NCBI GenBank assembly: GCA_023247875.1 | Contig: JAHFFQ010000033.1 | Coordinates: 1 to 11,598 of the forward strand | Direction: 5' to 3' | DNA from: Candidatus Omnitrophota bacterium | GTDB lineage: Bacteria; Omnitrophota; Gorgyraeia; Gygaellales; Profunditerraquicolaceae | DNA length: 11,598 nt | Part shown: one piece after another, positions 821-2,336 of the stretch | Numbering within the stretch: the stretch's first letter is position 1 | Layout of the letters: each line of letters begins with the position of its first letter | Notes under the pieces: model-generated | Told to the model about the DNA's origin: nothing | Database searches by the model: none | What the model saw: the letters and a program-made list of their open reading frames with translations, nothing else | Translations under genes and position numbers: made by a program

Positions 821-848
821 TTGACAAACCGCAATAATGTAGTATAAT
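821..848 (+). promoter_or_regulatory. Sigma70-type promoter for the leader, zinc mini-protein and helicase
   Basis: A perfect -35 box TTGACA lies at 821-826 and a perfect -10 box TATAAT at 843-848, separated by 16 bases. Transcription would start near 854-856, at the beginning of the structured leader. It sits 24 bases after the stop of the TPR gene. Having both hexamers at consensus suggests strong basal initiation, so control probably acts after initiation through the leader. Confidence 0.8.
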
Positions 849-853
849 AAAAC

Positions 854-909
854 AAAGATTAGCGAAAACTTTAAGCCGCCGGGGGACCACTAACCTTTGC
901 GGCTTTTTT
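854..909 (+). ncRNA. Short structured 5' leader: candidate pseudoknot or attenuator RNA
   Basis: The predicted transcript begins here and two helices can be drawn. Helix A pairs 854-862 (AAAGATTAG) with 890-898 (CTAACCTTT): nine positions with one A-C mismatch. Helix B pairs 873-879 (AAGCCGC) with 899-905 (GCGGCTT): seven perfect pairs. They interleave, so they either form an H-type pseudoknot or hinder one another sterically. With no bases between the two 3' strands and two 10-base linkers, a fully stacked pseudoknot would be strained, and alternation may be more likely. The purine-rich linker at 880-889 (CGGGGGACCA) is unpaired and could be a recognition element. The leader runs straight into a U-run and then a strong Shine-Dalgarno. 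I cannot assign it to a known riboswitch class. It could also be a plain attenuator, or a short independent RNA if the hairpin terminates efficiently. Confidence 0.5.
873..909 (+). terminator. Terminator-like hairpin with U-run in the leader
   Basis: A perfect 7-bp GC-rich stem (873-879 with 899-905) encloses a 19-base loop and runs into six T residues (904-909). The large loop is unusual for a simple terminator. It lies only about 20 bases after the predicted transcription start and directly before the next gene, which suits attenuation better than the end of the TPR gene's transcript, although it could serve both. Confidence 0.55.
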
Positions 910-1074
910 ATGGAGGTGCATATCAAAAAGGTAAAGACTTCACTAAAAGGAAGGAAATGCAAATTTTTGCATTGCAAGCATATTTTGAGTATTTATAATC
1001 ATGAGGATTATTGCCATGTGCATCTGGGCTTGTTAGCTTACGATCACAAACCCAAGGCCATGAAGGTATCATGA
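910..1074 (+). CDS. 54-residue putative zinc-binding mini-protein, coupled to the DEAD-box helicase
   Basis: This short frame is open from 838, with its only ATG at 910, and ends in TGA at 1072-1074, overlapping the helicase ATG (1071) as ATGA. The product is basic at the N-terminus and carries a compact Cys/His cluster: C17, C22, C35 and H38 (H36 is an alternative), spaced C-x4-C-x12-C-x2-H around the core LSIYN. This resembles the small C-x2-C...LSxYN...C-x2-C/H zinc-ribbon cores seen in some bacterial regulators. The role is unknown; binding nucleic acid or the helicase is an inference from context. Start choice is uncertain. ATG 910 has no Shine-Dalgarno, while the strong GGAGGTG at 912-918 would best serve the in-frame ATC at 922, giving 50 residues. 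The cysteine cluster is kept either way. The coupled overlap and preserved motif argue that it is real. Confidence 0.65.
   Translation: MEVHIKKVKTSLKGRKCKFLHCKHILSIYNHEDYCHVHLGLLAYDHKPKAMKVS
912..918 (+). promoter_or_regulatory. Very strong Shine-Dalgarno (GGAGGTG) with no standard start codon at the right distance
   Basis: GGAGGTG matches seven consecutive bases of the anti-Shine-Dalgarno complement. No ATG, GTG or TTG follows at 4-10 bases in any frame. The codon five bases after GGAGG is ATC (922-924), in frame with the zinc mini-protein. Alternatively the site may be a ribosome standby site for the ATG at 910, or part of the leader's regulatory fold. Confidence 0.5.
956..973 (+). repeat. 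AT-rich 8-bp inverted repeat inside the mini-protein gene
   Basis: AATGCAAA (956-963) and TTTGCATT (966-973) are perfect inverted copies around two T residues. In RNA this makes a weak, AU-rich hairpin just downstream of the ribosome-binding region, over the codons for the first two cysteines. A role in temperature- or helicase-dependent translation is possible but unproven. The palindrome could equally bind a protein in DNA or be coincidental. Confidence 0.4.
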
Positions 1075-2336
1075 CGAATAAACCGGCCGTGACAAATAAT
1101 ATTACACAAGCTAACCCGGGTTTTTATGGACTGGGTATCGCACCGAAAATACTGGATATCCTGGAGCGCATGAAGTTCAAGGTGCCTACTCCGATCCAGC
1201 TAAAGGCGATCCCTCTGGCCATTGAAGGTAAGGATATTGTAGGTATTGCCCAGACCGGAACCGGCAAGACGCATTCCTTTGCTATCCCCATGGTTCAACG
1301 CCTGGTGCAAAAAAAGGGCATTGGTTTGGTGCTGGCTCCGACCAGGGAGCTGGCCATTCAGATCGACGAAGCTTTTCAGAATATTGCTCATGCCTTTGGC
1401 ATGAAGACCGCCTGCCTTATAGGTGGGGCGCCCATGGAGCCCCAGGTGCAGGCACTGCGCAGGGATCCTCGCGTGGTTATCGCTACCCCCGGCAGGCTCA
1501 TTGACCATATGTCGCAGTGGAATTTTATTCCGGACATGGTGGTCATGCTTGTGCTTGATGAAGCCGACCGTATGCTGGATATGGGTTTTGCCCCGCAGAT
1601 AGATAAGATCCTGCGTTTCCTGCCCAAAGAAAGACAGACAATGCTATTTTCGGCGACCATGCCCAAAGAGATCATGAATATAGCATCCAAGCACATGAAA
1701 TTGCCCTTAAGTGTTGAGATCGCCCCTTCCGGGACTACCGCTGAGTTGGTCACCCAGGAATTATTCATCGTCAAGAGGGAGGATAAATCGCGCCTGTTAA
1801 AGAAGCTGCTTGCGCAATACCACGGTACCGTGCTTTTGTTTTCGCGCACTAAACATAATGCCAGAAAGATCGTCAAGTCGATCAGGGATATGGGGCATTC
1901 GGCTTCAGAAATACATTCCAACCGTACCCTTAGTCAGCGCCGGGATGCACTGGAAGGTTTTAAATCCGGGAAATACCGTGTGCTGGTTGCTACTGATATT
2001 GCCTCGCGGGGTATTGATGTTACCGGTATTGAGTTAGTGCTTAATTATGACCTGCCGGAAGATGCGGAAAATTACGTGCACCGCATCGGCCGCACCGCCC
2101 GGGCCGGGCATAAAGGCCATGCCGTTTCTTTTGCCACCCCTGACCAGAGTAATGATGTGCGTGATATTGAAAAACTGATCAAAGCCACCCTGCCCGTATC
2201 AAAGCACCCTGAGATCACCCTTGATAAATTCAGCGAATCCGGTCATCACCCCGCTCATCAACCAGGCCATAGGCAGCCAAAACATGCTCAAGCCAAGAAA
2301 CCGTATAAATTTCCCCGTCCCAAATTCTACCGCTAA
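1071..2336 (+). CDS. rhlE: ATP-dependent DEAD-box RNA helicase, RhlE type
   Basis: A 421-residue protein with every helicase motif in order: Q motif (F18 to Q43), motif I AQTGTGKT (60-67), Ia PTRELA (90-95), GG (118-119), Ib TPGR (139-142), II DEAD (163-166), III SAT (194-196), IV around LLFSRT (255-260), V ATDIASRGID (307-316) and VI HRIGRTARAG (337-346). The tail (about 390-421) is rich in His, Pro, Lys and Arg and ends in an aromatic-basic stretch, as in RhlE-like proteins that use basic tails to hold RNA. It would unwind RNA in the cytoplasm, for example in ribosome assembly or mRNA turnover at low temperature. ATG 1071 is preferred over the upstream TTG at 1011 because it overlaps the mini-protein stop (ATGA), has AAGG at 1063-1066 and puts the Q motif at the normal distance. 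The leader at 854-909 probably controls it. Confidence 0.95.
   Translation: MTNKPAVTNNITQANPGFYGLGIAPKILDILERMKFKVPTPIQLKAIPLAIEGKDIVGIAQTGTGKTHSFAIPMVQRLVQKKGIGLVLAPTRELAIQIDEAFQNIAHAFGMKTACLIGGAPMEPQVQALRRDPRVVIATPGRLIDHMSQWNFIPDMVVMLVLDEADRMLDMGFAPQIDKILRFLPKERQTMLFSATMPKEIMNIASKHMKLPLSVEIAPSGTTAELVTQELFIVKREDKSRLLKKLLAQYHGTVLLFSRTKHNARKIVKSIRDMGHSASEIHSNRTLSQRRDALEGFKSGKYRVLVATDIASRGIDVTGIELVLNYDLPEDAENYVHRIGRTARAGHKGHAVSFATPDQSNDVRDIEKLIKATLPVSKHPEITLDKFSESGHHPAHQPGHRQPKHAQAKKPYKFPRPKFYR

What the first reader, a model, noticed from the sequence alone, without database searches (positions are those of the whole stretch)
854..909. Interleaved-helix leader RNA between a consensus promoter and a zinc-protein/helicase operon
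Directly seen: a perfect TTGACA-16-TATAAT promoter fires into about 50 bases that can form a nine-position helix (854-862 with 890-898, one mismatch) interleaved with a perfect 7-bp helix (873-879 with 899-905) that ends in T6. The first helix completes before the 3' strand of the terminator-like stem is transcribed, so it could act as a kinetic antiterminator or form a ligand- or temperature-sensing pseudoknot. I recognise no known riboswitch class. Control of an RNA helicase by a structured leader that the helicase itself might unwind is an attractive autoregulation model (inference).
Basis: partly seen in the sequence, partly recalled or inferred. Interest (0 to 1): 0.72.

Follow-up and report, generated by a model that had tools for sequence, protein, structure and literature searches.

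The report
Attenuator RNA of a cold-shock regulon
A short RNA segment at the start of cold-shock-type messages, found in many Omnitrophota bacteria, appears to choose between stopping transcription and letting it continue; it matched no family in the RNA library searched, and it may switch on in the cold.

Summary
The same leader stands ahead of 24 of 30 orthologues of the downstream Zn-finger gene whose loci were held. Covariance models found it in 94 of 108 genomes of the window's family, 138 of 384 sampled phylum genomes and 7 of 248 genomes of the class of a Phycisphaerae MAG. No Rfam family reached threshold. Of 186 leaders classified, 166 precede a cold-shock protein (101), the Zn protein (54) or a DEAD-box helicase (11).

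I read it as a transcription attenuator. The first helix is the outer part of a competing hairpin that holds the terminator's CCUU; it is nearly invariant, without significant covariation. An added inner helix does covary, moderately. The two folds probably exclude each other, so a pseudoknot is unlikely. In silico the competing hairpin is transient and cold-favoured, in the window more than in most relatives. Temperature sensing, or feedback by RNA chaperones, is inference; there are no expression data.

The parts
821..848 (+). Promoter TTGACA-N16-TATAAT
   Evidence: 12 of 12 matches; in 15 of 51 ZnP-type leaders with a recognisable -10 it lies 5-6 bases before strand A
854..862 (+). Strand A (AAAGAUUAG), 5' half of the antiterminator outer helix H1; probably the very 5' end of the RNA
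   Evidence: sequence; conserved in A1, A2, A3; of 186 leaders A9 is kept in 186, G10 in 185, U7 and U8 in 182 each
869..872 (+). 5' half of the inner antiterminator helix H1' (CUUU, pairs with 881-884 GGGG, three of four pairs G-U in the window)
   Evidence: fold with H1 imposed; covariation of this helix across leaders
873..884 (+). Strand B, terminator 5' strand (AAGCCGC, then GGGG at 881-884); in the competing fold 881-884 pair with 869-872 and the rest is apical loop
890..898 (+). Strand C (CUAACCUUU): 3' half of H1; its CCUU (894-897) is also the inner part of the terminator 3' strand
899..905 (+). Strand D (GCGGCUU), outer terminator 3' strand
   Evidence: covaries with strand B:
904..909 (+). 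U tract of the intrinsic terminator
   Evidence: sequence; U in 95-100 of 100 leaders at five successive columns (columns 73-77)
912..916 (+). Shine-Dalgarno GGAGG of the Zn-protein gene
   Evidence: sequence
922..1074 (+). Small Zn-finger-like protein (no Pfam or NCBIfam match), best start AUC at 922-924 rather than ATG910; stop overlaps the helicase start
1071..2336 (+). DEAD-box RNA helicase (below the cut-off of every NCBIfam helicase model listed, e.g. CshA, DbpA, RhlE)

Best explanation
The leader is a cis-acting transcription attenuator, one copy of a family that controls a cold-shock-type regulon in Omnitrophota. RNA polymerase starts at or just before strand A. When strand C leaves the polymerase, A pairs with C (H1) and a second helix (H1') forms inside it, giving an antiterminator hairpin that holds the CCUU of the terminator's 3' strand and keeps strand B in or near its loop. 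If it persists, the terminator cannot form while the polymerase is on the U tract, and the Zn-protein/helicase operon is transcribed. If it is weak or opened, strand B pairs with CCUU-GCGGC and transcription stops after about 55 nt. I think the switch is set mainly by temperature (the hairpin lives longer in the cold), with feedback from RNA chaperones plausible. Shown: conservation, genes controlled, covariation of the terminator and, more weakly, of H1'. Inferred: in vivo use, mutual exclusion in three dimensions, direction of the switch, the signal.
For: Terminator strands covary (z 10.5, 0 of 3000) and are followed by a conserved U tract. H1': 0 of 3000 permutations on 147 unique pairs (6 of 3000 counting Watson-Crick pairs only); 1 of 3000 on 75 thinned rows; 12 of 3000 on 55 more strictly thinned rows. 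In a map of 56 registers the strongest signal and most pairs are at offset 3/3 (z 5.2), continuing along the same helix diagonal (4.1, 3.5, 4.6). Pair types include AUCUU:AAGAU, AACUU:AAGUU, AUCUC:GGGAU, AUCUA:UAGAU. H1: at four pairs outside the terminator 27 of 38 changed cells still pair, 26 gaps aside; at columns 61-62 A changes to G 25 times and to U twice, at neighbouring columns 57-58 45 to G, 63 to U, 16 to C; the mismatch column 6 is A 158, U 26, G 2. Transcripts ending at strand C: median P(H1) 0.90 at 37 C and 0.99 at 10 C for 163 of 186 leaders; window 0.15 and 0.94 (one base longer 0.30 and 0.97). Genes: CSP 101, ZnP 54, DEAD 11 of 186; 17 of 18 further leaders precede a CSP.
Against: H1 itself shows no significant covariation, and the changes on its 5' side (columns 7-10, nine cells) mostly break pairs. 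Eleven of 204 leaders have no recognisable strand C; two of them are csp leaders of the window's own genome (L155, L157). The complete terminator is about 7 kcal/mol more stable than the antiterminator at 37 and 10 C (medians -15.9 and -8.8; -24.2 and -17.6; 153 leaders), and H1 vanishes in equilibrium folds once strand D is present (five leaders), so antitermination must be kinetic. In ZnP-type leaders, the window's class, median P(H1) is only 0.28 at 37 and 0.52 at 10 C; in csp leaders it hardly changes (0.97, 1.00). Shuffling the loops lowers mean P(H1) only slightly (0.73 to 0.69 at 10 C, 0.68 to 0.59 at 37 C). H1' controls: slid registers (gap 4-5) reached z 3.6 against 3.3 for H1' in the thinned set, and two did as well; single registers elsewhere give z from -4.8 to 4.9, so relatedness inflates these z values. 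Low-temperature energies are extrapolated. No RNA data.
Confidence: 0.55

Rival explanations
1. The attenuator senses RNA-chaperone activity rather than temperature: free cold-shock protein or helicase opens the antiterminator (negative feedback), or melts the terminator (positive feedback).
For: 166 of 186 leaders precede CSP, Zn protein or DEAD helicase. Csps alter readthrough at terminators: reported as antiterminators in E. coli, and lack of CspB/CspD in B. subtilis changed readthrough in both directions (PMC8307031, passages).
Against: Leaders also precede acyltransferases, NMO/FabK-like enzymes, B12-radical SAM proteins and a Uup-like ATPase, which fits a common cold signal better than pure autoregulation, though a Csp-sensing regulon would also allow it.
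Confidence: 0.25
2. The leader ends in a terminator, but UUAG and CUAAC are conserved as a protein-binding site (Csp, Zn protein or ribosomal protein); A:C pairing is incidental.
For: UUAG and CUAA are almost invariant, more than a helix needs; no significant A/C covariation; 11 of 38 changed cells at the four core pairs do not pair.
Against: Changes in CUAA are mostly of the kind that keeps a G-U pair, and the A6/C63 mismatch position varies more freely; the inner helix H1' covaries.
Confidence: 0.15
3. A ligand-binding pseudoknot (riboswitch) formed by both helices together.
For: With only H1 and the 7-bp helix formed, no base is used twice.
Against: No linker between the two 3' strands; once H1' is included the pseudoknot is sterically unlikely (inference); the genes share a cold theme, not a metabolite; no Rfam class.
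Confidence: 0.03
4. A DNA-level operator (inverted repeat AAAGATTAG/CTAACCTTT) for a repressor.
For: The repeat sits next to the -10 in the window's genus.
Against: Spacing between the half sites varies, the -10 distance varies from 5 to over 25, and compensatory changes of the RNA type occur in the terminator stem.
Confidence: 0.02

Closest known systems
E. coli cspA mRNA thermosensor (cspA thermoregulator of Rfam; the Rfam name is recalled)
   Same: A 5' leader of a cold-shock gene with alternative structures; the cold structure exists only below 20 C (PMC9947658, passages).
   Different: That element is described as acting on ribosome binding and translation; this one is about 55 nt, ends in an intrinsic terminator, and reached no Rfam threshold.
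Terminator/antiterminator attenuators (trp, pyr and riboswitch type; recalled)
   Same: Two competing hairpins share a strand; one is followed by a U tract.
   Different: No leader peptide (no ATG or GTG between promoter and terminator; one TTG at 897-899 inside the stem region) and no recognised ligand aptamer.
B. subtilis cspB/cspC 5' UTR cold-shock boxes
   Same: Conserved boxes in csp 5' UTRs; suppressor mutations lay in or very close to one, and the one tested raised a cspC reporter about twofold (PMC8307031, passages).
   Different: No terminator/antiterminator pair is described in the passages seen; the sequences were not compared here.
S. aureus cspB/cspC RNA thermoswitches (recalled, no call)
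   Same: Mutually exclusive hairpins ahead of cold-shock genes (recalled).
   Different: Recalled as acting on translation; not tested here.

Membership tests
Intrinsic (Rho-independent) terminator | G+C-rich hairpin directly followed by a U tract | tested here: met
   window 873-909; stem covaries; U columns 73-77 at 95-100 of 100
Intrinsic (Rho-independent) terminator | Terminates transcription | not testable with these tools
   no RNA data or assay
Transcription attenuator leader | Located between promoter and regulated gene | tested here: met
   CSP, ZnP or DEAD gene within 400 bases in 166 of 186
Transcription attenuator leader | Alternative hairpin mutually exclusive with the terminator, supported by comparison | tested here: inconclusive
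   inner helix covaries but some slid controls score as high; outer helix near-invariant; exclusion is geometric inference
Transcription attenuator leader | Readthrough changes with a signal | not testable with these tools
   needs a termination assay
RNA thermometer/thermosensor | Structure changes within the physiological temperature range | tested here: inconclusive
   predicted only: window P(H1) 0.94 at 10 C, 0.15 at 37 C; the csp class hardly changes (1.00 to 0.97)
Any Rfam 15 family, including the cspA thermoregulator | Covariance-model match at gathering score | tested here: not met
   window; 12 loci; the only match is a tRNA; permissive scan of 780-1080 gave six matches, all far below gathering
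Leader-peptide attenuator | Translated leader peptide before the terminator | tested here: not met
   no ATG or GTG between 849 and 905

The most novel reading that the evidence does not exclude
A family of RNA elements in which the lifetime of a co-transcriptional antiterminator hairpin is the thermometer: cold makes it outlast the polymerase's stay on the U tract, so one attenuator turns on RNA chaperones, helicase and membrane-lipid genes together across an uncultured phylum, with a second control at the operon's first gene through a conserved AUU/AUC start codon.
Probability: 0.33. Interest if true: 0.85.

Novelty: new variant of a known kind. Interest (0 to 1): 0.7.

Why it matters
It gives a largely uncultured phylum a recognisable cold-shock regulon, defined by an RNA motif that can be searched for in genomes. 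It also offers a short, testable case of cold-shock control at transcription termination, whereas the cspA work seen here concerns translation. If the predicted temperature dependence holds, it would show how a thermometer can work by timing rather than by equilibrium melting.

Tried and rejected
Rfam at gathering and permissive thresholds gave no meaningful match. The 5' hairpin P0 (AAGAUU with AAUCUU) looked attractive in helicase-type leaders but does not covary (z -1.2); its 3' strand follows the L2 loop instead, which led to the antiterminator reading. Pairing energy of A with C gave only weak support against permutation (216 of 2000 for 127 unique pairs, 176 of 2000 for 53 non-canonical pairs), as did whole-segment energy for H1' (496 of 5000, though 0 of 200 when the letters of L2 were shuffled); fixed-register counts were clearer. 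One search's H1 table is not used, because its parser asks for purines at columns 61-62 and left out 11 of 204 leaders; one search counts by model columns instead. Searches used 163 and 156 of 186 leaders, those that could be parsed; one search used 163, its energies 153 and its loop control 157. One search kept 186 of the 195 rows of A2 and A3; dropped were the opposite-strand match of L299 and eight matches with E of 0.015 or more. The genome-wide pattern scan found 103 stretches, of which 80 were listed; L166 (Lentisphaerae) looks like a chance match. Paper searches: Omnitrophota with riboswitch, 0 papers; in the capped lists I saw, by title and abstract start, nothing that describes this element. 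The Zn protein had no match in Pfam or NCBIfam and none better than E 0.48 in PDB sequences. No structure prediction was run.

Full report
What is there. The minimum-energy fold extends the terminator stem inward: 881-884 pair with 894-897.

Conservation. The 54-aa reading frame from ATG910 was used to search 58 related genomes; 35 had it. Loci were held for 30 of these matches. In 24 of the 30 the upstream region holds AAAGATTAG (or a close variant), a short spacer, GCCGCCAAGG or similar, a short spacer, and CTAACCTTT followed by a GCGGC-like strand and T; of the six others one (L012) had almost no upstream DNA. The start of L006 was corrected by hand before alignment. The relatives belong to Omnitrophota: contig G004:C3 (297,952 bases, same genus as the window) has the length of DJVP01000011.1, titled Candidatus Omnitrophica bacterium UBA6253.

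Extent. Model R1 (24 leaders) matched 87 of 384 sampled phylum genomes at E 0.001 or better. Model R2 (100 leaders) matched 138 of 384 (two of the 138 lie outside the window's class), 94 of 108 genomes of the window's family and 7 of 248 genomes in the class of a Phycisphaerae MAG, two of the seven being the MAGs already known. All eight Phycisphaerae leaders fetched precede the same Zn protein. In the window's own genome R2 gives three matches at E 0.001 or better. R1 gave four further weak ones, of which three (C77, C51, C159) lie just ahead of a cold-shock gene. With R2 these score 33.9, 44.4 and 38.1 bits. C77 and C159 have no recognisable strand C. The genome has four cold-shock domains in three places, the fourth 160 bases behind the one at C51.

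Genes controlled. Of 186 leaders found by the models alone, the first recognised gene within 400 bases is a cold-shock protein in 101, the Zn protein in 54 and a DEAD helicase in 11; 19 are other genes and one contig ends. Read by eye from the protein starts printed there, the 19 are ten NMO/FabK-like, five acyltransferase, two B12-radical SAM, one Uup-like and one with a small CxxC protein. Pfam and NCBIfam were run on six of these 19 (two NMO, one acyltransferase, two radical SAM, one ABC-F) and agree; FabK, HpnJ, BchE and Uup themselves stay below their NCBIfam cut-offs, so a lipid role is likely for the acyltransferases and only possible for the others. Of 18 further leaders from outside the window's family, 17 precede a cold-shock protein and one was not classified.

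Structure by comparison. The terminator stem varies with compensating changes (z 10.5, 0 of 3000). The A:C helix hardly varies: no significant covariation (z 0.7). At its four pairs outside the terminator, in 186 leaders, 680 cells are canonical, 27 changed but paired, 11 unpaired and 26 gapped. On the C side 28 of 32 changes would keep a pair; on the A side (columns 7-10) there are nine changes and nearly all break one. At columns 61-62 A changes almost only to G, whereas unpaired neighbours change to anything, and the constant mismatch position changes freely from A to U. These counts are not corrected for relatedness. The segment after UUAG covaries with the segment before CUAAC in the register that extends A:C inward (H1'): 0 of 3000 permutations for 147 unique pairs, 1 of 3000 for 75 thinned rows, 12 of 3000 for 55 more strictly thinned rows. 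Slid registers form fewer pairs, but one reached z 3.6 against 3.3 in the thinned set and two matched H1'. A map of single registers puts the highest z (5.2) and the most pairs at 3/3, with 4.1, 3.5 and 4.6 further along the same helix; other registers range from -4.8 to 4.9. So the support is moderate and the exact register may differ between subfamilies. The alternative 5' hairpin P0 has none (z -1.2).

Mechanism. For transcripts ending at strand C, ViennaRNA gives a median P(H1) of 0.90 at 37 C and 0.99 at 10 C over 163 leaders. By class at 37 and 10 C: csp 0.97 and 1.00 (84), DEAD 0.63 and 0.96 (9), ZnP 0.28 and 0.52 (54). The window goes from 0.15 at 37 C to 0.94 at 10 C, with its midpoint near 25 C. 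Once strand D is included the terminator wins at the temperatures tried in the five leaders tried, being about 7 kcal/mol more stable (medians of 153). A polymerase covers about 14 nt of RNA (recalled), so strand C emerges when the polymerase is on the U tract: the competing hairpin and the terminator meet at the moment of decision. I infer that a longer-lived competing hairpin, as in the cold, gives readthrough. The terminator's outer 3' strand follows that hairpin without a linker while its partner lies near the hairpin's far end, so I also infer that the two cannot coexist.

Literature. I saw no paper describing this element in the capped listings; most subscription papers are not in that library. 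For B. subtilis Csps I saw passages (PMC8307031), for the E. coli cspA thermosensor passages (PMC9947658), for sigR and IF3 the abstract and outline (PMC5472188). A word search of the main text of the Omnitrophota survey PMC10066038 found no occurrence of cold, riboswitch, leader, start codon or helicase.

Start codon of the first gene. Among 59 distinct Zn-protein genes, the codon aligned with the start is ATC or ATT in 37, ATG in 17 and GTG in 1; four rows, among them Phycisphaerae, have ATG one codon earlier. By my count, 23 of the 37 have no in-frame ATG, GTG, TTG or CTG before the upstream stop. Where the leader was recognised within 150 bases and no csp intervenes, 22 are AUY and 5 ATG; where a csp intervenes, 1 is AUY, 7 ATG and 1 GTG; in the rest, with the leader further away or not recognised by the simple pattern, 14 are AUY and 5 ATG. 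In the window AUC at 922 lies 5 bases behind GGAGG, while ATG910 precedes it and GTG916 overlaps it. IF3 represses a non-canonical start in Streptomyces sigR, and E. coli IF3 rises at least 3-fold relative to ribosomes after cold shock (PMC6511841, abstract start). Any link to this operon is speculation.

Verdict. A real, widespread cis-regulatory RNA and very probably an attenuator of a cold-shock-type regulon; its signal and direction remain to be tested.

Noticed in passing
window 922-924 and 36 other distinct Zn-protein genes: The Zn-protein gene seems to start with AUC or AUU, usually behind a good Shine-Dalgarno sequence; 23 of 37 have no usual in-frame start codon (count).
   Followed up: partly
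csp-type leaders, e.g. L075, L096, L097, L098: A second possible switch: GUAGUAAAU at the 5' end and again next to the Shine-Dalgarno sequence, both complementary to a UUUACUA between them; all three parts in 34 of 101 csp leaders; 5' segment against downstream pairing 2 of 2000 permutations in csp leaders, 989 of 2000 in ZnP leaders.
   Followed up: partly
L061, L076, L079, L090, L300 (acyltransferase); L059, L110, L123, L138, L152, L296, L303, L305, L320, L351 (NMO/FabK-like); L070, L129 (B12-radical SAM); L329 (Uup-like); L312 (small CxxC protein): The same leader ahead of other enzymes, possibly lipid-related, and an ABC-F ATPase, suggesting a wider cold regulon (six of 19 checked by family search).
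   Followed up: partly
L300/L301 (G654:C121), L296 (G024:C9), G028:C22: Three or four leaders lie within about 6 to 26 kb of one another on one contig, hinting at clusters of cold-shock genes.
   Followed up: no
window 922-1074: Zn protein: C13, C18, C31, H32, H34 and SIYNH are invariant in 31 sequences aligned, 30 of the 51 homologues found and the window; no Pfam or NCBIfam family; non-significant PDB resemblance to a CREB-binding-protein zinc finger (best E 0.48).
   Followed up: partly
L340-L347: The leader and Zn protein also occur in some Phycisphaerae MAGs, which may mean transfer between phyla or mis-binned contigs.
   Followed up: no
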